Positions 150 to 28,197 of a DNA stretch of 29,113 nt are shown one piece after another. Each line of letters begins with the position of its first letter. Position 1 is the first letter of the stretch. The notes under the pieces are model-generated. The model was not told the DNA's origin. It ran no database searches and saw only the letters and a list, made by a program, of their open reading frames with translations. The position numbers were made by a program, and so were the translations under genes. Source of the DNA: a virus; the IMG/VR virus record IMGVR_UViG_3300042514_000507, positions 1-29,113 of that record, one strand, 5' to 3'.

Positions 150-223
150 GCGGGTATGATGTAATGGTAGCTTGTGACCTTGCCAAGGTTAGCGTGAGAG
201 TTCGATTCTCTCTACCCGCTCCA
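150..223 (+). tRNA. tRNA-Gly (anticodon GCC)
   Basis: Full cloverleaf. The acceptor GCGGGTA pairs with TACCCGC, the D-loop is AATGGTA, and the anticodon loop TTGCCAA gives GCC. The T-loop is TTCGATT and CCA is encoded at 221-223. It is the first of ten tRNAs in the array. Confidence 0.93.
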
Positions 224-231
224 GTTTTTAT

Positions 232-306
232 GGAGAAATTAGTTTAGTGGTAAAACCGCGGGTTGTGATTCCGCTATCACGGGTTCGATTCCCGTACTTC
301 TCCCCA
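232..306 (+). tRNA. tRNA-His (anticodon GTG) with encoded G-1
   Basis: The anticodon loop TTGTGAT gives GTG. The acceptor only pairs well if the first base is taken as the extra G(-1) of tRNA-His, paired with C73; CCA then falls at 304-306. The T-arm CGGG-TTCGATT-CCCG is canonical. One mismatch is seen near the base of the acceptor stem. Confidence 0.92.
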
Positions 307-326
307 ATTTTTATTAAGGAAATTTT

Positions 327-566
327 ATGACGTATGTTCCATTGAATCGTAATGTAATTGTTGAACGAAAAGAACCAGAGAAAGTTTCTTCCGGTGGTAT
401 CATTCTACAAAGTTCTATTGAACCAGATCGTGCAATTGTAATTGCAACTGGTGATGAATCACTTTCAATTGGTGAAGAACTATTGATTAATTGGAACAAA
501 GCATATAAAATTGAAAAGGAAACATATCGTATTCACATTGATGATGTGATTGCGGTATTTGAATGA
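327..566 (+). CDS. Miniature GroES-like co-chaperonin (gp31-like role)
   Basis: The protein has 79 residues and the layout of the GroES/Cpn10 family. It begins with a beta-strand (YVPLNRNVIVERKE), followed by a mobile-loop segment SSGGIILQSS. That segment matches the GroES mobile loop, whose Gly-Gly-Ile-hydrophobic tip docks on GroEL. A Gly-containing barrel strand (AIVIATGDE) comes next. It is shorter than bacterial GroES (about 97 residues) and T4 gp31 (111). T4-like phages use such proteins with host GroEL to fold the major capsid protein; that role here is inferred. A Shine-Dalgarno AAGGA precedes the ATG. It sits between tRNA-His and tRNA-Val, and its stop codon directly abuts the first base of tRNA-Val. 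Confidence 0.8.
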   Translation: MTYVPLNRNVIVERKEPEKVSSGGIILQSSIEPDRAIVIATGDESLSIGEELLINWNKAYKIEKETYRIHIDDVIAVFE

Positions 567-641
567 GCCTTGTTAACTCAGCGGTAGAGTAACTCTTTTA
601 CACGGAGAAGGTCGGCGGTTCGATCCCGTCACAAGGTACCA
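567..641 (+). tRNA. tRNA-Val (anticodon TAC)
   Basis: Acceptor GCCTTGT pairs with ACAAGGT. The D-arm is ACTC/GAGT and the anticodon loop TTTACAC gives TAC. CCA is encoded at the 3' end. The first base follows the TGA stop of the GroES-like gene with no spacer, so RNase P cleavage would cut at the end of that gene's coding sequence. Confidence 0.9.
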
Positions 642-645
642 GTTT

Positions 646-721
646 GCCAACTTAGCTGATGTGGTCATAGCGGTGGTCTGAAGAACCATGGAAGGCGGTT
701 CGATTCCGTCAGTTGGTACCA
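646..721 (+). tRNA. tRNA-Phe (anticodon GAA)
   Basis: Acceptor GCCAACT pairs with AGTTGGT. The anticodon stem GTGGT/ACCAT encloses CTGAAGA, giving GAA. The T-loop is TTCGATT and CCA is encoded. Confidence 0.92.
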
Positions 722-725
722 ATTA

Positions 726-800
726 TGCTCTCATAGTATAGTGGCATTACACACCCTTGGTAAGGGTGAAACACAAGTTCAATTCTTGTTGGGAGCACCA
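726..800 (+). tRNA. tRNA-Thr (anticodon GGT)
   Basis: Acceptor TGCTCTC pairs with GGGAGCA. The anticodon stem CACCC/GGGTG encloses TTGGTAA, giving GGT. The T-loop is TTCAATT and CCA is encoded. Confidence 0.92.
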
Positions 801-807
801 ATTTTAT

Positions 808-884
808 GCCTCGGTGACGGAATCGGTATACGTGCCAGTCTCAAACACTGGATTTTGGGGGCTCGACTCCCCCCTGGGGCACCA
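808..884 (+). tRNA. tRNA-Leu (anticodon CAA), short variable arm
   Basis: Acceptor GCCTCGG pairs with CTGGGGC. The anticodon stem CCAGT/ACTGG encloses CTCAAAC, giving CAA. The D-arm has the class II (Leu-like) shape, but the variable region is only about six bases and the whole gene is 77 nt, shorter than a usual tRNA-Leu. The T-loop is CTCGACT, with C in place of T54. CCA is encoded. Confidence 0.85.
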
Positions 885-885
885 T

Positions 886-975
886 GGAAGATGCAGTAGG
901 ATGGTTCCTACGTCCGTTTGGAAAACGGAAGACTTGCCACCGCCGGTCGGGGTTCAATTCCTCCTTCTTCCTCCA
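886..975 (+). tRNA. tRNA-Ser (anticodon GGA)
   Basis: Acceptor GGAAGAT pairs with the 3' TTCTTCC region. The anticodon stem TCCGT/ACGGA encloses TTGGAAA, giving GGA. A long variable arm, as expected of tRNA-Ser, gives a 90-nt gene. The T-loop is TTCAATT and CCA is encoded. Confidence 0.92.
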
Positions 976-977
976 TC

Positions 978-1052
978 GTCCTTGTAGTTCAATGGATAGA
1001 ATACGTTCCTCCTAAGAATGGGATACAGGTTCGATTCCTGTCGAGGACACCA
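978..1052 (+). tRNA. tRNA-Arg (anticodon CCT)
   Basis: Acceptor GTCCTTG pairs with CGAGGAC. The anticodon stem CGTTC/GAATG encloses CTCCTAA, giving CCT. The T-arm is ACAGG-TTCGATT-CCTGT and CCA is encoded. It is the last complete tRNA before the Ro-like cassette. Confidence 0.92.
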
Positions 1053-1083: not shown

Positions 1084-1112
1084 TTGCCAAGTTACACTTA
1101 ACGTGATATAAT
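1084..1112 (+). promoter_or_regulatory. Strong sigma70-type promoter with extended -10
   Basis: TTGCCA (1084-1089) and a perfect TATAAT (1107-1112) are separated by exactly 17 bases. TG at -15/-14 makes an extended -10 element. Transcription should start near 1119. A 9-bp inverted repeat (1106-1114 with 1123-1131) covers the -10 box and start point and could be an operator, or the stem-loop that accompanies many early promoters of T4-type phages. It drives the RNA and Ro-like region downstream. Confidence 0.65.
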
Positions 1113-1118
1113 CTTTAT

Positions 1119-1360
1119 ATGGAGATTATATAAGTTTTTTAGGATGGATTCAGCAAGTTTAAATTAACTTACTACAGAACCGTCTACAATGGAGGGACCA
1201 CCGCAAGGTGTATTTTCGTAGACTAGGGAATAAACCTCAATTAAATTTGACTCTGGAAAGACAGAAAGATGATGGTAATCCATCGGGGTTTGAGTGGTTC
1301 AATTGCACTCCTGTTAGAGTAAACAGAAAATTACAGAACGACCATCCTGTTATTTTTTTT
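1119..1360 (+). ncRNA. Candidate structured noncoding RNA, family unknown
   Basis: There is no convincing coding frame here, but consecutive local hairpins are visible. A GTCTAC/GTAGAC stem (1182-1187 with 1218-1223) encloses CACC-GCAA-GGTG, a GNRA-capped hairpin. GATGG-TAAT-CCATC lies at 1271-1284. A GAGTG/CACTC stem (1292-1310) has a TTCAATT, T-loop-like tip. CTGTT/AACAG lies at 1311-1326. The stretch begins at the predicted start of a strong promoter and ends in eight T residues (1353-1360) after a weak stem, so it could be an independent transcript of about 240 nt or the leader of the Y-like RNA and Ro-like gene. I do not recognise it as tmRNA, RNase P RNA or a group I intron core. Confidence 0.45.
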
Positions 1361-1476
1361 AGGTTAAGTTCCGCAAAACAAAATATGCAAATGAAAACTG
1401 AAAGACCGGTTCGATTCCGGACTCCCTTAGGGGTCTAGTGTAATGGTAGCACGTTGGTCCGCAAAAAGTTTAACCT
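1361..1476 (+). ncRNA. YrlA-like Y RNA: circularly permuted tRNA mimic
   Basis: The ends form a 10-bp basal stem (1361-1370 with 1467-1476, two wobble pairs). Inside, tRNA arms occur in permuted order. First is a T-arm: CCGG (1406-1409) and CCGG (1417-1420) around TTCGATT. Next is an acceptor-like stem (1421-1425 with 1430-1434) closed by a CTTA loop where the free CCA end should be. Last is a D-arm: GTGT (1438-1441) and GCAC (1449-1452) around AATGGTA. The GG of the D-loop and TTC.A of the T-loop needed for the tRNA elbow are present. Bacterial YrlA RNAs are described as tRNA mimics lacking a free CCA end, with the Ro-binding stem leaving where the anticodon stem would be; the order seen here matches that. 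A 9-nt direct repeat (TCCGCAAAA at 1370 and 1458) lies just inside the stem. The Ro-like gene starts 22 bases later. The alternative is two unrelated tRNA remnants. Confidence 0.6.
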
Positions 1477-1498
1477 GTTGATTGAAAAGGAGTTCATT

Positions 1499-2929
1499 AT
1501 GTCAACATTTGTCGAAGCTGTTAAGAACCAAGAAGCCCGTACCGAAAACGGTATGAAGGCTCGCAAGTCAACTGCCAATGCGGTGGTTGATTTGTTTTAC
1601 AATGCGGGTGCTTCCCGTGGAAAAGATATTAAGCCTGCATTTGCGGCTGCCTTGGCGGAGAACCGTGAATTGGCTCTCCGTGTTGCCGCATGGCTACGTG
1701 ATGCACGTGGTGGTGCTGGTGAACGTCAATTGTTCCGTGATATCCTAGTGTATCTGGAAAACACTGATACAGAAGCCGCTAAGGCTCTGTTGGCTAAAGT
1801 GCCAGAATTGGGTCGTTGGGATGATTTGTTTGTCTTCAAGACCAAAGCACTGAAAGAAGCCGCATACACTATTCTTGGTAACGCACTCCGTGAAAAGAAT
1901 GGTTTGGCGGCTAAGTGGACACCTCGCCAAGGTCCACTTGCGGCAGAAATCCGTACATTCTTCGGAATGTCACCAAAGTTCTACCGTAAGTCTTTGGTTG
2001 AAATGACCAAAGTTGTTGAAACAAACATGTGTGCAAAGGACTGGGATTCCATTAACTTCTCACATGTTCCTTCTGTGGCGGCTTCCCGTTACAAGAAGGC
2101 TTTCAACCGTAACTCTCCAGCTTATGCGGCTTACGTTGCAGAACTGATGAAGGATCCAAAGGATCGTTCCGTTGAAGTTAAGGTTAACGCATCTGCGGTA
2201 TTCCCATATGATGTGCTGAAGGGTCGTATCAACAGCTATGGTGTGAAGTTCGACAAGACCGAAATGGACTTGATTGAAGCACAATGGAACGCATTGCCTA
2301 ACTATGTTGGTGATGCAAACATTCTGCCTCTGGTTGACGTATCCGGTTCTATGACCTGCACCGCAGGCAAGACTGGTAAGTTGACCTGTTTGGAAGTTGC
2401 AGTCTCTCTGGGATTGTACCTTGCTGACAAGAACAAGGGTGCGTTCAAGGACACATTCTTGACCTTCTCTGGCAAGCCAGAATTGATGCACCTAAAGGGT
2501 GGTATCAACTCTAAGATTGACCAAATGGTTAAGTCCAACTGGGATATGAACACTGACCTGAACAAGGCCTTTGCGAAAATCCTAGACGTTGCTGTAAAAG
2601 GTAACGTAGCGAAAGAAGATATGCCTTCAATGGTGTTGATTCTGTCTGACATGCAATTTGACCAATGTGTCAAGCATGATGACTCTGCAATCGAAATGAT
2701 TGCACGTAAGTACGAAGCCGCAGGCTACATCCTTCCAAAGGTTGTATTCTGGAACTTGAACGCTTCATATGGCAATGCGCCTGTGAAGTTTGACAAGTCT
2801 GGTACTGCACTGGTGTCTGGTTTCTCTCCAGCCGTGGTTAAGCCACTCCTTGCTGGTGACCTAGAAACCTTCACACCAGAAACTGTGATGCTTAAGACCA
2901 TCATGGATGACCGTTACAAAGTGCTGTAA
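1499..2929 (+). CDS. Ro60-like RNA-binding protein (DUF2828/TROVE type, vWA domain)
   Basis: The protein has 476 residues, a size similar to Ro60/Rsr. Residues 1-270 are helical and include the signature LRDARGGAGERQLF and LGRWDDLF. A short AVFPYDVLKG segment precedes the vWA domain, where Ro60 has HPFHILIAL. The vWA MIDAS is complete: DVSGSM from D280, Thr352 in NTDLN, and Asp384 in LSDMQFD. The SDMQFD and PKVVFWNL motifs are typical of DUF2828 proteins. Ro proteins are rings that bind Y RNA on the outside and misfolded RNA ends in the cavity. That function is inferred here from the architecture and from the Y-like RNAs on both sides. ATG at 1499 is chosen because AAGGAG lies 6 bases upstream; the in-frame TTG at 1454 lies inside the upstream RNA. 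The gene looks more GC-rich than its neighbours (27 of 60 bases in a sampled stretch against 19 of 60 in a downstream gene). Confidence 0.8.
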   Translation: MSTFVEAVKNQEARTENGMKARKSTANAVVDLFYNAGASRGKDIKPAFAAALAENRELALRVAAWLRDARGGAGERQLFRDILVYLENTDTEAAKALLAKVPELGRWDDLFVFKTKALKEAAYTILGNALREKNGLAAKWTPRQGPLAAEIRTFFGMSPKFYRKSLVEMTKVVETNMCAKDWDSINFSHVPSVAASRYKKAFNRNSPAYAAYVAELMKDPKDRSVEVKVNASAVFPYDVLKGRINSYGVKFDKTEMDLIEAQWNALPNYVGDANILPLVDVSGSMTCTAGKTGKLTCLEVAVSLGLYLADKNKGAFKDTFLTFSGKPELMHLKGGINSKIDQMVKSNWDMNTDLNKAFAKILDVAVKGNVAKEDMPSMVLILSDMQFDQCVKHDDSAIEMIARKYEAAGYILPKVVFWNLNASYGNAPVKFDKSGTALVSGFSPAVVKPLLAGDLETFTPETVMLKTIMDDRYKVL

Positions 2930-2936
2930 CGGCTAT

Positions 2937-2960
2937 GGACACCGAAAGGTGTCCATTTTT
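2937..2960 (+). terminator. Rho-independent terminator of the Ro-like gene
   Basis: GGACACC-GAAA-GGTGTCC forms a 7-bp stem with a GNRA loop, followed by ATTTTT. It starts 7 bases after the stop codon. Its 3' half (TGTCC plus the T run) is also the outer part of the 19-bp stem of the following RNA, so the two folds exclude each other. Confidence 0.75.
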
Positions 2961-3042
2961 AACCACATACCCTACGCCCGATTAGTAAGGGAGATAGCGA
3001 CTAAACGCTGAAGAACGGTTCAAATGTGGTTAAAAATGGACA
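2950..3042 (+). ncRNA. Second Y-RNA-like candidate with a 19-bp end stem
   Basis: A perfect 19-bp inverted repeat (2950-2968 with 3024-3042) closes a 55-nt loop. In the loop are CCCT/AGGG (2970-2973 with 2988-2991), around a D-loop-like segment GATTAGTA, and TAGCG/CGCTG (2995-2999 with 3006-3010). GGTTCAA, a T-loop-like sequence, lies at 3018-3024. Arm order is that of a normal tRNA, with the long stem in the acceptor place and no CCA. Its 3' end lies one base before the first base of tRNA-Leu, so RNase P maturation of that tRNA would release it with an almost flush stem. Ends joined in a long stem plus a folded loop is the general plan of Y RNAs. A decayed tRNA or an attenuator are alternatives. 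Confidence 0.5.
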
Positions 3043-3043
3043 T

Positions 3044-3131
3044 GCGGGTATGGTGGAATGGTAGACACAGCGGGCTTAAAACCCGCCGCAATTTAAAAAG
3101 CGTGAGGGTTCGAATCCCTCTTCCCGCACCA
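3044..3131 (+). tRNA. tRNA-Leu (anticodon TAA)
   Basis: Acceptor GCGGGTA pairs with TTCCCGC, with one T-T mismatch. The anticodon stem GCGGG/CCCGC encloses CTTAAAA, giving TAA. A long variable arm and a T-arm GAGGG-TTCGAAT-CCCTC complete an 88-nt class II tRNA with encoded CCA. Confidence 0.93.
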
Positions 3132-3133
3132 AA

Positions 3134-3209
3134 TGCTCCGATAGCTTAATGGTAAAGCAGTGAACTCATAATTCATTGAGTCTAGGTTCAATTCCTAGTC
3201 GGAGCACCA
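3134..3209 (+). tRNA. tRNA-Met-type (anticodon CAT)
   Basis: Acceptor TGCTCCG pairs with CGGAGCA. The anticodon stem GTGAA/TTCAT encloses CTCATAA, giving CAT. The normal T1-A72 pair argues against an initiator tRNA. An elongator Met or a lysidine-modified Ile tRNA both remain possible. CCA is encoded and the gene ends two bases before the convergent minus-strand operon. Confidence 0.9.
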
Positions 3210-4502: not shown

Positions 4503-4719
4503 AGTTATTCCATCTTTGCTGTTTAGAAGTTTCTTTTTTCTGTTCGGCTAACATACGAAGCCACTCTTTTTTCACTTCCAAATCATGCTTCTTACGTTCT
4601 AATTCAGACATTGAATTGTCGTCATAGAAAATATAAAAAGATGCAATACCAATTCCAATACCTAAAATAAAATATGGTAACAAATCAAAAAACCAATTTA
4701 AATCGAGTGTGATAATCAT
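4486..4719 (-). CDS. Small membrane protein with charged C-terminal helix
   Basis: The protein has 77 residues. An N-terminal hydrophobic helix (WFFDLLPYFILGIGIGIASFYIF, about 9-31) is followed by an acidic turn and a Lys/Glu-rich helix (ELERKKHDLEVKKEWLRML). One membrane pass plus a cytoplasmic or periplasmic coil is likely. It couples by a 4-base overlap to the preceding secreted protein and overlaps the next coiled-coil gene by 17 bases. The family is not recognised. Confidence 0.65.
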   Translation of the reverse strand: MIITLDLNWFFDLLPYFILGIGIGIASFYIFYDDNSMSELERKKHDLEVKKEWLRMLAEQKKETSKQQRWNNYVRRN

Positions 4720-5126
4720 TTTTCAAACTTTAGTGCTTTTAAGTTATTTAATTCATTTTCCAATTTTTGAATTTCAATCCTCTTTTTAGTCAATTCAAGT
4801 TGATAAAGAATATTACAATCAACCCGTCCTTTTGGTGCACCAATTGGTATGGTTATTCTTCCATATACACCAACATCTTTTGCATTCTGATTCATTGAAT
4901 TTGATATAGTTGTTTGATACGGATTGGTGTTATTTCCTATAACACCAATAACTCCAAACTCTACGTTTGTACCCGAACCTATAGCCATAGAACAATCCAA
5001 TTCGCCTGACCTAAATCTATCCGATTGATAGCTACCAGGAGCACTAGGTAATGCTAAACTTAATGCTCCTTGAGCAAAACTGTTTTGTGTTACCAGTAAT
5101 ATAAGTAGACCAATCAAATATTTCAT
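4716..5126 (-). CDS. Exported protein with C-terminal helix
   Basis: The protein has 136 residues. The signal peptide MKYLIGLLILLVTQNSFAQ is followed by a Ser/Gly-rich region (SLALPSAPGSYQSDRFRSGE) and a beta-rich core (MAIGSGTNVEFGVIGVIGNN, VGVYGRITIPIG). A Lys/Glu/Leu helix ends the chain (ELTKKRIEIQKLENELNNL). Two cysteines (LDCSM and VDCNI) could form a disulfide. An exported, possibly outer-membrane-associated protein is inferred. Its start overlaps the stop of the chaperone-like gene by 4 bases. The specific family is unknown. Confidence 0.7.
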   Translation of the reverse strand: MKYLIGLLILLVTQNSFAQGALSLALPSAPGSYQSDRFRSGELDCSMAIGSGTNVEFGVIGVIGNNTNPYQTTISNSMNQNAKDVGVYGRITIPIGAPKGRVDCNILYQLELTKKRIEIQKLENELNNLKALKFEK

Positions 5127-25128: not shown

Positions 25129-26166
25129 ATGTTCAACAAAAACGTATTCACCCAAACCGATGTTGTTGCGGACCTCATCAAAGGTATCAACGAAGCCGAT
25201 TATAAGGCTAAGATGGAAGCACTAAAGGGTAATCAACACAAGATTGATAAAAATAAAAATAATAAGATCGATGCTCACGACTTCAAAATTCTTCGTGGTG
25301 AAAAGAAGCCAATGAAAGAAGAAAGTGTAGAAGAAGCGAACAATCCTTTCGACTATAAAAATTACAAGAGTCAGATTCCTACCAAACCGGGTGAAAAAGC
25401 TGGATTTGATTCTAAAAAAATCTCCACAGGAACTGTTTATAGCAGGAAACCTGTTAAAGATGATGAACCAGTGAAAAAAGAAGAAATTGATCCTGATAAA
25501 GTAACGACAGACACATTATCTGGCCGTGTTAAAGGTAAAACTTCTAATCCATTTGCTCCAAAGAAAGTGATGATAGACGTTGCAGGTAACGTTAAGGAAG
25601 AAATTGAGCAAGTTGATGAATTTGAATTTACTGCGGAAGATATCGAAAACTTTATGCAAACTGAAGAATATGAACAATTAGATGAACTGAGCAAAAACAC
25701 TCTTAAGCGTTACTCGGATGCTGCTAATAAAGATTTTTCTAAAAACTTTCAGCATGACCAAAACTTCACGGGTGTACATTCTGCTTTAAGAACAGCAATG
25801 GCAAAAACCAACTCTGGTGCGGGAGGTTTTGACCCATTAAAAGGTAGAAATAAAAATCCTTTACGTAAACATGATGCAGTACAAGCAGGTTTAAAGACAG
25901 CCGCTGATGCAGTGACCGCAGCTAGAGCGCCATTTAAACATAAGATGAAAGTTAGAAATCAAGGAATGCATCGTGCTGTTGCTCGTCTAAACAAAGAAGA
26001 AGTGGAGCAAATGGACGAACGCACTCTGTCCAAAGGAGAGACTGCTGAAAAAGAACGTATCGTTAAGGGTATGAAAAAATCTCTAGCAGGCTTCAAAGAG
26101 CGTTATGGCAAAGATGCTAAGTCTGTGATGTATGCAACAGCGACAAAGGCCGCTAAAAAGGACTAA
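25129..26166 (+). CDS. Modular virion-internal protein with EF-hand-like loop
   Basis: The protein has 345 residues. ATG 25129 follows ACGGAGA; an upstream in-frame ATG at 25057 lies inside the preceding gene. Residues about 43-57 read KIDKNKNNKIDAHDF, a calcium-binding EF-hand/dockerin-type loop with ligands at positions 1, 3, 5, 9 and 12. The chain then has the acidic motifs EEIEQVDEF, YEQLDELSKNTLKRY and EEVEQMDER, separated by basic helical stretches. It ends KSVMYATATKAAKK. Each motif contains hydrophobic-x-Glu, the consensus cut by the T4 gp21 prohead protease. I read it as a head-internal or core protein processed during maturation; this is inference. Confidence 0.65.
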   Translation: MFNKNVFTQTDVVADLIKGINEADYKAKMEALKGNQHKIDKNKNNKIDAHDFKILRGEKKPMKEESVEEANNPFDYKNYKSQIPTKPGEKAGFDSKKISTGTVYSRKPVKDDEPVKKEEIDPDKVTTDTLSGRVKGKTSNPFAPKKVMIDVAGNVKEEIEQVDEFEFTAEDIENFMQTEEYEQLDELSKNTLKRYSDAANKDFSKNFQHDQNFTGVHSALRTAMAKTNSGAGGFDPLKGRNKNPLRKHDAVQAGLKTAADAVTAARAPFKHKMKVRNQGMHRAVARLNKEEVEQMDERTLSKGETAEKERIVKGMKKSLAGFKERYGKDAKSVMYATATKAAKKD

Positions 26167-26169
26167 GCA

Positions 26170-28197
26170 ATGAGCAAAGCTGGTAAATTAGTCAAGGATA
26201 TGGTGAAGGCCAAGAAAGAGTCTGTTATGGGCAAACTTGGTGATTCACCATATGAGGATCCAATGGAGCCTTGGTCCGCAAAGTATGCACAACCTGTCAA
26301 AGAGGAAGCCCTAAATGAGGACGGCCTTTTGATGAAGTACATCCGTTCACTTGGATTCAATCCAGAGTTTATGTCTTTCGCACAGCGTTCTTCATATGCA
26401 CGTTCAAATGCATTCAAGCGTTACAAAACTGGTCATACTTTTGACCGTGAAAAACAGAACCTAAAAACAGAAGAAACTGAACAACTAGATGAAGCTGGTA
26501 CAGGTCTTCTAATGTCTTTCATTAAGTCAAAGGGTTTGAATCCTTTGACCATGGATGGAAATCAAAAGAAAGCATACGCACGTTCTTCAGAATTCAGAAT
26601 TTTCAAGATGCGTCACATGAAAGAAACCTCGGGTATGGGTGAACGTGGTGATGATTGGAATGAAGAAAAGAAACAAGTTAAAGAAGCGGTTGATGAAAAA
26701 GATACCGTAACAATGGACATTCCATTGCTAATTCGTGTTCTGGAGTATGCACGTGAAGATGCAAAGACCGATATGGATCTTCACAAAGTTGTGGAGAATC
26801 TAATCAATATGCGTGGTGAAGGTGCATTGTCTATGGACATGTACAATAAAATTGTTGCAATCAAAGAAGAAATTGAACGTATTGATGAATTGAAATCAAC
26901 TACACTCAAAAGTTACAAAACTGCCGCACACAAATCACTCGGTGCAAATGCGGTGTCCCGCCAAGCGGGTGAGATTAGCAGTAAAGAATATCATGCAACA
27001 GCCGACAAGCGTTCTAAGGGTATCAATCGTGCCGATGCGGATAAACGTTTGGGTACGTATGCCGATAAAACTCCTAAGAAGTTGGATATCAGCGCATATG
27101 GTAAACAGATTCAAAAACAATACCATTCAGAAGAAGTTGAACATATCGAGGAACTTTCTTCCGACCTTCTTGGTCGTTACAAGAAAGCCGCTGGTGCTCA
27201 AGCATCTGCCGCTGATAAAGCTGGTGATGTTGCAAAAGGTAACAAACGCTTTTCTGGTATAATGAAAGCTACTAGAAAACAGTTTGATAATGATGCTAAA
27301 AAAATCAACGAACTGAAAAATCAAAACGACAATGGAGAACTTGATAGTCACATCACACGTGAAGACTTGCGTAAGTGGTTCAGCAAGACTGATCCAGAAG
27401 GTGATTGGAAAAGAATCAATTCAAAAGGTGAGGTAGCAGGTCCGTGCGCCAGAGAACCAGGTGAACCAAAACCAAAATGCATGTCAAAAGAAAAACGCTC
27501 TGAACTCAGTAAGAGTGAACGTGCGGCCGCTGTTGCAACAAAGAGAAGACATGATCCAGTTGCAGACAGAGCAGGCAAGGGCGGTAAACCCGTCAATGTT
27601 TCGAATTACGGTAAAGGTAAACTCAGTGAAGAAGAAGTTGATGAAGCATGTTGGGACACTCACAAAAAAGTTGGAATGAAAATGAAGGGTGGAAAAATGG
27701 TACCCGATTGTGTACCTAAAAACGAAGAAGTTGAGCAAATCGATGAAAAGAATAAGCCAACAAATCCTTCACTTTGGTCGAGAGCAAAATCTCTGGCACG
27801 TTCCAAGTTTGATGTTTATCCTTCCGCATATGCAAACGGTTGGGCATCGAAATGGTATAAGTCAAAAGGTGGTGGTTGGAAGTCTGTCAAAGAAGATGTT
27901 GTGCAAGAGGGTATCGGTGGCATCGAAGATTCTCCAATGTCAGCTACAAACTCAGTAAAAGCAATGGAATCCGAACACCGTAAAAAGAACATGAAATCAG
28001 CACGTATCATTAAATCCATCTATAAAAAGAAGGGTAAAAATGAAAGCATGTATGATTGGGAAAAAACTGATAAGGGTGGTAAATTACCCACAGCCAAAAT
28101 TACATTACAGGGTGGCACTACTATGACAGGAAAGCCACGTGACACCGTTGAAATCGAGCCTGTTCTTAAGACCAGACCCAATTCACAGAAACAATAA
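26170..28197 (+). CDS. Large modular basic protein with DUF5872-like segments
   Basis: The protein has 675 residues. Order: a tandem 35-residue repeat (about 52-86 and 112-146, with YARS); motifs ETEQLDEAG, EEIERIDELKSTTLKSY and EEVEHIEELSSDLLGRY, each starting a helical basic module; a segment DLRKWFSKTDPEGDWKRI to PKCMSKEKRSELSKSER to GKPVNV (about 395-480); CWDTHKKVGMKMKGGKM with EEVEQIDE; and LWSRAKSLARSKFDVYPSAY with GWASKWYKSKGGGW. The WF...GDW and FDVYPSAYANGWASKWY segments are typical of DUF5872-like modules in phages. A DNA-binding, head-packaged mosaic protein is inferred. It follows its neighbour by three bases. Confidence 0.65.
   Translation: MSKAGKLVKDMVKAKKESVMGKLGDSPYEDPMEPWSAKYAQPVKEEALNEDGLLMKYIRSLGFNPEFMSFAQRSSYARSNAFKRYKTGHTFDREKQNLKTEETEQLDEAGTGLLMSFIKSKGLNPLTMDGNQKKAYARSSEFRIFKMRHMKETSGMGERGDDWNEEKKQVKEAVDEKDTVTMDIPLLIRVLEYAREDAKTDMDLHKVVENLINMRGEGALSMDMYNKIVAIKEEIERIDELKSTTLKSYKTAAHKSLGANAVSRQAGEISSKEYHATADKRSKGINRADADKRLGTYADKTPKKLDISAYGKQIQKQYHSEEVEHIEELSSDLLGRYKKAAGAQASAADKAGDVAKGNKRFSGIMKATRKQFDNDAKKINELKNQNDNGELDSHITREDLRKWFSKTDPEGDWKRINSKGEVAGPCAREPGEPKPKCMSKEKRSELSKSERAAAVATKRRHDPVADRAGKGGKPVNVSNYGKGKLSEEEVDEACWDTHKKVGMKMKGGKMVPDCVPKNEEVEQIDEKNKPTNPSLWSRAKSLARSKFDVYPSAYANGWASKWYKSKGGGWKSVKEDVVQEGIGGIEDSPMSATNSVKAMESEHRKKNMKSARIIKSIYKKKGKNESMYDWEKTDKGGKLPTAKITLQGGTTMTGKPRDTVEIEPVLKTRPNSQKQ
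26323..26607 (+). repeat. Internal duplication inside the large modular protein
   Basis: Two 35-codon copies (26323-26427 and 26503-26607) both read GLLM, then Ile, Ser, Gly, Asn-Pro, then YARS, Phe and a basic end. Copies start 180 bases apart, with an ETEQLDEAG motif just before the second. Confidence 0.7.

What the first reader, a model, noticed from the sequence alone, without database searches (positions are those of the whole stretch)
1361..3042. Phage Ro60-like ribonucleoprotein cassette with Y-RNA-like RNAs on both sides
A Ro60-like vWA protein sits inside a phage tRNA array, with a YrlA-like permuted tRNA mimic ending 22 bases upstream and a long-stem RNA starting 20 bases downstream. 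Ro proteins are known to work with Y RNAs that tether them to partners such as polynucleotide phosphorylase, and bacterial Ro genes usually sit beside Y RNA genes. Finding a DUF2828-type relative in the same arrangement would link that poorly known family to Ro biology and suggests the phage makes its own RNA-quality or RNA-degradation particle.
Basis: partly seen in the sequence, partly recalled or inferred. Interest (0 to 1): 0.9.

Follow-up and report, generated by a model that had tools for sequence, protein, structure and literature searches.

The report
Phage Ro-like protein with tRNA-mimic RNAs
A family of bacterial viruses makes a protein shaped like the human Ro60 autoantigen together with strings of small RNAs that share one handle and often carry pieces of tRNA, such as anticodon loops, which suggests a viral protein-RNA particle that shows off, or baits with, tRNA parts.

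Summary
Confirmed and extended. The 476-aa protein (1499-2926) is DUF2828/DUF7788 by Pfam and predicts at pLDDT 91 to a full-length Ro60 fold (Z 21.1 to Ro-RNA complex 1yvp, 411 residues, 4.0 A). The upstream RNA (1361-1477) is a permuted tRNA on a stem, as in YrlA; 21 of 23 consensus pairs show compensatory changes. A second RNA (1141-1349) shares its ends. Both belong to a modular RNA family I found described nowhere: 7-bp stem, CAGCAA, exchangeable body, stem', G ('chassis'). An element ends within 60 nt of the gene in 54 of 55 dereplicated close loci (shuffled 0.1). All 17 named DUF2828 phages examined have at least one candidate, weakest in KVP40 and Munch. Bodies include anticodon-like stem-loops (220 of 666 elements; shuffled 15), acceptor-less and permuted tRNAs, and unexplained folds; the chassis also sits inside whole tRNAs. 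Starting from the RNA, 18 of 21 long contigs tested encode the protein. The downstream long stem is real but lacks the chassis. Protein-RNA binding and function are unproven; a decoy/adaptor particle is my best guess. A Listeria phage paper and phage annotations had already hinted at Ro and Y RNAs.

The parts
1084..1112 (+). sigma70-type promoter candidate (TTGCCA-17-TATAAT) ahead of the RNA array and the gene
   Evidence: consensus scan, 11 of 12 matches; but 4 promoter-like sites found in the region vs 3.1 expected, so weak
1141..1349 (+). chassis RNA 1 (about 209 nt): 5' AGGATGGATTCAGCAA, 3' CCATCCTG, large unknown module
   Evidence: finder; fold z -3.2; relatives in L004, L005, L007, L008, L013, L021, L052, L065
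1361..1477 (+). chassis RNA 2: permuted tRNA mimic (T arm - closed acceptor - D arm), YrlA-like
   Evidence: alignment A3 of 22 chosen examples incl. LeBron, FelixO1, S13; 21 of 23 pairs with double changes
1499..2929 (+). Ro-like protein, 476 aa, DUF2828 + DUF7788, vWA with MIDAS motif DVSGSM
2936..2955 (+). terminator-like hairpin after the gene (TGGACACC-GAAA-GGTGTCCA, then T run)
   Evidence: fold -14.4 kcal/mol, z -5.5; not listed by the terminator scan
2949..3043 (+). long-stem RNA: 20-bp stem with a 55-nt insert; no chassis; inserts differ between relatives; its 5' arm overlaps the terminator-like hairpin
150..1052 (+). eight tRNA genes (with a GroES-like gene at 327-566) upstream of the cassette
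3044..3209 (+). two tRNA genes (Leu, Met) downstream

Best explanation
A phage Ro ribonucleoprotein. The DUF2828 protein has the Ro60 fold; the chassis (7-bp stem, CAGCAA side, A-rich opposite side) is most likely its binding handle, and each RNA's body is an exchangeable module held outward. Many modules are tRNA parts (anticodon stem-loops, T/D-arm mimics, whole tRNAs); others are larger unknown folds. Most likely use: loaded Ro presents tRNA parts as baits or adaptors during infection, chiefly decoying host tRNA-cutting defences or recruiting tRNA-handling enzymes. Shown here: fold, RNA family, stem pairing, tRNA-like modules, co-occurrence. Inferred: binding (about 0.85), module-as-adaptor (about 0.7), decoy against anticodon nucleases (about 0.35-0.4).
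For: Fold: Z 21.1 to 1yvp; best non-Ro row Z 11.3, vWA part only. Stem pairing: with the 3' end chosen by sequence alone, 241 of 339 unique pairs match at all five tested positions vs 24.8 after shuffling arms. Adjacency: 77 of 78 close loci, 54 of 55 after dereplication, 0.1 with shuffled flanks. Strand: in 10 DUF2828 phage genomes scanned whole, strict elements were 33 on the gene strand, 1 on the other. RNA-first: protein in 18 of 21 contigs >=68 kb tested (one, L415, was already known as a protein hit), vs 672 of 50,697 phage records (a different collection, with phages of all sizes). Modules: 220 of 666 elements hold a 5-bp stem with a 7-nt U33/R37 loop, T-loops excluded, vs 15.1 shuffled; anticodons UUU 38, UGU 36, UCU 20, GGA+UGA 28. 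Closed chassis inside CCA-ended tRNAs. Outside data: in Listeria phage CKA15 the homolog was detected in CsCl-purified particles and abundant non-coding RNAs are made within 2 kb upstream (PMC12282133).
Against: No binding or activity data. Of 348 elements <=80 nt, 202 show no anticodon-type loop by my rule, and the element set includes some chance hits in coding DNA. Larger modules are unexplained. The strict filter was set after seeing the data; per kilobase, its hits in the 10 genomes (34 in 1.79 Mb) are only about twice those in two controls without the protein (T4 0/2, T5 1/0), so the weight lies on strand, clustering and sequence, not on count; the T5 hit reads like chance. In KVP40 generic hits (16) do not exceed shuffles (17). 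In CKA15 the one abundant region whose place is given (26236-26727) has no chassis. Three RNA-bearing contigs of 68-122 kb showed no gene (possibly fragments). In Munch and OspM_OC the elements lie about 180 kb and 50 kb from the gene.
Confidence: 0.75

Rival explanations
1. RNA degradation or quality-control particle, as for D. radiodurans Rsr: the RNAs tether Ro to PNPase or another nuclease and the tRNA-like modules are binding sites for it.
For: Same fold as Rsr 2nvo (Z 12.4) and as Ro bound to misfolded RNA, 2i91 (Z 20.8); the authors of PMC12282133 propose it.
Against: Why tethers to one nuclease should imitate anticodon loops of many tRNAs, with bodies that differ even between close relatives, is not explained. 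Whether a nuclease gene is a constant neighbour was not tested.
Confidence: 0.25
2. The chassis is a processing or splicing signal: a mobile insertion or intron-like element in phage tRNA genes, recognised by an RNase or ligase; the Ro-like protein is incidental.
For: Taking the closed chassis out of the BUCT-ZZ01 genes by eye leaves an ordinary tRNA anticodon arm (sequence); many elements lie between tRNAs; RNA ligase genes lie near the gene in P100 and Munch.
Against: Linear elements hold fragments that could never become tRNAs (lone anticodon loops); co-occurrence with the protein is strong.
Confidence: 0.08
3. Leader-type regulation: the array upstream of the gene controls expression of the Ro-like protein.
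For: The last element ends 16-36 nt before the ATG in most close relatives.
Against: Many elements lie downstream or kilobases away among tRNAs (LeBron, S-CoN_Ph3, FelixO1, S13).
Confidence: 0.07

Closest known systems
Bacterial Ro (Rsr) with Y RNAs / YrlA (Rfam RF02553)
   Same: Ro fold; stem plus outward module; permuted tRNA module in one class, matched by RF02553 below its cut-off (L057 40.7 bits, L020 36 bits, gathering 69)
   Different: DUF2828, not TROVE, by sequence model; no CAGCAA in the RF02553 consensus shown; arrays of several RNAs; anticodon-loop modules; chassis inserted in tRNAs
Mycobacteriophage 'Ro-like RNA binding protein' genes (LeBron etc.) and the Y RNAs that PMC12282133 says Chen 2014 found bioinformatically in mycobacteriophages (Chen 2014 itself not held)
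   Same: same protein family; LeBron has three chassis RNAs, one a permuted tRNA
   Different: I cannot tell how much of the LeBron RNAs Chen 2014 covered; the common chassis, its spread over phages of many hosts and the anticodon modules I saw in no held paper
Listeria phage CKA15_055 and its abundant non-coding RNAs (PMC12282133)
   Same: homolog directly downstream of three chassis RNAs at 25289-25552; authors suggested Rsr plus Y RNAs
   Different: no motif or structure in the passages and sections I read; their mapped region 26236-26727 lacks the chassis
Phage tRNAs that counter tRNA-cutting defences (PMC11555353, PMC13096335; search listing and abstract openings only)
   Same: phage tRNAs answering host tRNA cleavage
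   Different: those are tRNAs; here tRNA parts on a shared handle

Membership tests
Ro60/TROVE family | Ro fold over the whole protein | tested here: met
   Z 21.1, 411 residues, 4.0 A to 1yvp, model range 9-457 of 476; the 13 Foldseek matches with E<=0.001 are Ro/TROVE entries
Ro60/TROVE family | match to the Pfam TROVE sequence model | tested here: not met
   only DUF7788, DUF2828 and a weak L-PSP match at E<=10; no PDB sequence match by phmmer
Ro60/TROVE family | vWA metal site residues (DxSxS, T, D; motif recalled) | tested here: met
   D280 S282 S284 T352 D384 invariant in the 54 sequences of A2
Ro60/TROVE family | binding of Y RNA | not testable with these tools
   needs co-purification or gel shift
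DUF2828/DUF7788 (phrog_850) | sequence profile match | tested here: met
YrlA (RF02553) | score above Rfam gathering cut-off | tested here: not met
   no YrlA match in the window; best relative 40.7 bits vs 69 (7 loci searched)
YrlA (RF02553) | T arm - acceptor - D arm in permuted order | tested here: met
   consensus structure of 22 chosen sequences
YrlA (RF02553) | outer (Ro-binding) stem like the YrlA consensus | tested here: inconclusive
   one relative (L020) aligned to RF02553: outer stem positions fall on other bases than the chassis, several non-standard pairs
YrlA (RF02553) | gene beside a Ro gene | tested here: met
   54 of 55 dereplicated loci have a chassis RNA, of any module class, within 60 nt of the Ro-like gene

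The most novel reading that the evidence does not exclude
Phages of hosts in several phyla share a counter-defence particle: a Ro-like protein loaded with a menu of chassis RNAs, each displaying a different tRNA part, that soaks up or misdirects host anticodon nucleases and other tRNA-targeting effectors; since the Listeria homolog was detected in purified particles, the loaded protein might even be injected with the DNA.
Probability: 0.35. Interest if true: 0.95.

Novelty: new variant of a known kind. Interest (0 to 1): 0.86.

Why it matters
It ties a family that Pfam calls only DUF2828 to Ro biology by structure and gives it a candidate RNA partner list in well-known phages (FelixO1, P100, LeBron, KVP40). 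The chassis is not an Rfam family (some modules do match tRNA or, weakly, YrlA). An RNA family that displays anticodon loops and other tRNA parts makes two open questions directly testable: what phage Ro proteins do, and why phages keep so much tRNA-like RNA.

Tried and rejected
Single-sequence folding of 1361-1478 gave no signal (z 0.35); an alignment was needed. Distant blastn of the upstream RNAs found only short scraps in 8 phage records. The first element finder had an index error and reported zero everywhere; corrected. Finders that require a stem starting with A missed LeBron, and a narrower pattern gave nothing in KVP40; the generic finder was then used. In OspM_OC and Munch the first stretches fetched (31 kb) had no element; they appeared only when the whole genomes were scanned; DLP6 was scanned at 80-139 kb only. 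A tally of anticodon-like loops (250 of 666) included T-loops and was replaced by 220 of 666. The first structure model (36 close sequences, pLDDT 72.6) already had Ro entries as its top Foldseek rows and was superseded. T4 rnaD and the three T5 stable RNAs show no chassis by eye (T4 rnaC not read in full). Considered and dropped: Y RNA status for the downstream long stem. A whole-genome YrlA search among relatives could not run. Literature: ten searches showed no paper describing this chassis, but result lists were cut at 10-20 rows and only open-licence papers are held; Chen 2014 and two Sim/Wolin reviews are not held.

Full report
What is in the window. The window is one whole IMG/VR virus contig of 29,113 bases, T4-like by its DNA polymerase and DnaB-like helicase matches. 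Ten tRNAs lie at 150-1052 and 3044-3209, with a GroES-like gene at 327-566. Between them lie, in order: a promoter-like site (1084-1112; the number of such sites is not above chance), an RNA at 1141-1349, a second RNA at 1361-1477, the 476-residue gene (1499-2929), a terminator-like hairpin (2936-2955) and a long-stem RNA (2949-3043).

The protein. Pfam gives DUF7788 (7.5e-49) and DUF2828 (5.9e-21) and no TROVE match at E<=10; PHROGs gives phrog_850 'RNA-binding protein'. tblastn finds it in 672 of 50,697 phage records, among them Escherichia, Mycobacterium, Salmonella, Vibrio, Listeria, Staphylococcus, Campylobacter and Enterococcus phages. AlphaFold2 with 54 diverse sequences gives pLDDT 91.1, pTM 0.89. 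The 13 matches with E<=0.001 in PDB are Ro/TROVE structures. VIA-align gives Z 21.1 to Ro with RNA (1yvp, 411 residues, 4.0 A, 13% identity), 15.3 to a Thermus phage Ro60 (9l5y), 12.4 to D. radiodurans Rsr (2nvo); the best non-Ro row is 11.3 over the vWA part alone. So it has the Ro fold although the TROVE sequence model fails. Others have noted the link: a record note 'HHpred similar to 2NVO', mycobacteriophage annotations and the CKA15 paper.

The RNA family. Reading the flanks of 80 related loci showed that both upstream RNAs share ends. A finder for the ends gave 158 forward, 3 reverse and 4.4 shuffled hits. The chassis is: 7-bp stem, three bases (often GUU or GUA), C-A/C-G-C-A-A, body, A-rich stretch, complementary stem, then G (base counts). 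Of the 81 close loci, 78 have at least 75 nt upstream; 77 of these have an element ending within 60 nt of the ATG (L062 does not) and 68 have two or more within 720 nt, ends binned. After dereplication by protein similarity it is 54 of 55, against 0.1 (maximum 1) when the upstream DNA is shuffled. The stem is a real pairing: choosing the 3' end by sequence only, 241 of 339 unique pairs match at five positions, against 24.8 after shuffling. Among 666 unique elements that start with A-A/G there are 97 different 7-nt arms; that set requires pairing and contains some chance hits.

Modules. (a) Anticodon stem-loops, for example CUUUUAA, CUUGUAA, CUUCUAA, CUGUAAA, CUGCAAA loops. In 185 short elements (a few of them plainly coding) 62 had a 7-nt loop on a stem of 5 bp or more, 53 with U33 and a purine at 37, against a shuffle mean of 0.7 and maximum 3. 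Over all 666 elements, 220 qualify with T-loops excluded, shuffles 15.1, maximum 25. (b) D arm, anticodon arm and T arm without an acceptor (L029, L036, L037, L066); one such stretch in L066 passes the Rfam tRNA cut-off (31.9 bits). (c) Permuted tRNAs as in the window; 22 examples picked by me, including LeBron, FelixO1 and S13, give 23 predicted pairs, 21 with double changes; Rfam YrlA sees relatives below its cut-off. (d) A 150-nt module (18 sequences, 13 of 25 predicted pairs with double changes), (e) the 209-nt module of the window's first RNA, and other large bodies, all unexplained. (f) The chassis closed by a short loop and inserted in tRNAs that end in CCA (L004, L005, L006, L007, L044, L051, L057, L066; S13; BUCT-ZZ01), annotated in S13 as tRNA-Ser and tRNA-OTHER and in Ci1 as a pseudo-tRNA.

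Spread. Each of the 17 named DUF2828 phages I examined (KVP40, S13, DLP6, BUCT-ZZ01, FelixO1, P100, LeBron, OspM_OC, Ci1, Munch, CP30A, S-CoN_Ph3, EFDG1, BcoS-136, N3, LAh_9, cka15; 17 of 672 records) has at least one candidate element. They are beside the gene in P100, cka15, CP30A, S-CoN_Ph3, LAh_9 and LeBron, among tRNAs in FelixO1, S13 and BcoS-136, 9-17 kb away in DLP6, and about 50 and 180 kb away in OspM_OC and Munch. Generic finder hits versus shuffles for eight whole genomes: FelixO1 7/2, P100 5/2, LeBron 8/2, KVP40 16/17, S13 11/6, BUCT-ZZ01 8/2, two IMG/VR phages 14/4 and 17/2: KVP40 is no better than shuffled by count, though its best candidates lie on the gene strand within 15 kb. 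With a strict filter, set after seeing the data, ten genomes give 33 hits on the gene strand and 1 on the other; two controls without the protein give T4 0/2 and T5 1/0. Per kilobase that is only about a twofold difference, so I rest the case on strand, clustering by the gene or tRNAs, and motif.

From the RNA side. I tested 21; 18 encode the protein (13 of 16; 5 of 5). One of the 21 (L415, the contig of L104) was already a protein hit; the 4 not tested (contigs of L036, L064, L267, L282) were protein hits already. The three without a match may be fragments.

The downstream RNA. In 54 dereplicated loci with enough sequence, 46 have a stem of 11 bp or more and 35 one of 15 bp or more within reach of the stop codon; shuffled 11.3 and 0.3. 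Most of the long ones are of the type CATTTTGAARUAUAYU (43 of 79 loci hold the TTTTGAA/TTTTAAA core), with inserts of 3 to 93 nt; the window's own is a variant shared with L002-L004 and L027. Such stems are rare among the more distant of these loci (L062-L081), I did not look further, and there is no chassis. I regard it as a separate element.

Mechanism. Shown: Ro fold, a structured RNA family with one handle and exchangeable, often tRNA-derived bodies, co-occurrence with the protein. Inferred: the handle binds the protein. From established Ro biology (recalled), the Ro ring holds a Y RNA by a conserved stem and the rest of the RNA contacts partners. Here that would put anticodon loops and tRNA elbows on display. 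Exchange of modules between close relatives, siting in tRNA arrays and imitation of anticodon loops (UUU the commonest) fit an arms race with tRNA-cutting defences; the same anatomy would also suit adaptors that bring tRNA-handling enzymes to Ro. I give the decoy reading 0.35-0.4 and the degradation-particle reading 0.25.

Outside evidence. In Listeria phage CKA15 the homolog (CKA15_055, 20 peptides, 57% coverage) was detected in purified particles, though the authors caution that proteins from outside the structural module may not be true particle proteins, and three abundant non-coding regions lie within 2 kb upstream; they suggest Y RNAs, among other options (PMC12282133: passages, section 8, and part 1 of section 19). 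I find three chassis RNAs at 25289-25552 directly upstream of that gene, but the one region whose place the text gives (26236-26727) has no chassis, so I do not claim that their most abundant RNA is of this family.

Limits. The finders are heuristic; contigs are partly redundant; only two control phages were scanned; binding and function are untested.

Noticed in passing
window 2949-3043; downstream flanks of L002-L061: Long A/U-rich stem with swapped inserts between the gene's terminator-like hairpin and the next tRNA; a second modular RNA, no chassis.
   Followed up: partly
L163 4896-5138 (Cronobacter phage S13), L366 17012-17125 (Citrobacter Ci1), L165 near 4600-4850: tRNA genes interrupted in or near the anticodon arm by a closed chassis hairpin; annotated as tRNA-Ser, tRNA-OTHER or pseudo-tRNA in S13 and Ci1.
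   Followed up: partly
L556 2737-3228 (CKA15 26236-26727): One of the most abundant phage transcript regions of CKA15 per PMC12282133; it contains no chassis and is another non-coding RNA candidate.
   Followed up: no
alignment A4; window 1141-1349: 150-nt and 209-nt chassis modules with conserved blocks and no convincing Rfam match; unknown mimicry.
   Followed up: partly
window 327-566: GroES-like co-chaperonin gene between tRNA genes (phrog_3188, E 4.7e-8).
   Followed up: no
L162, about 50-100 bases upstream of the gene at 3001 (KVP40): A T-arm-like palindrome (GGGTTCAAATCC) sits in the promoter-like region just upstream of the Ro-like gene.
   Followed up: no
G029 114281-116802; Campylobacter phages (two places per record): Split, and apparently duplicated, copies of the Ro-like gene.
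   Followed up: no
PMC6333295 passage: A TROVE gene is present in 20 of 29 archaeal tRNA gene clusters, a parallel to the phage arrangement.
   Followed up: no
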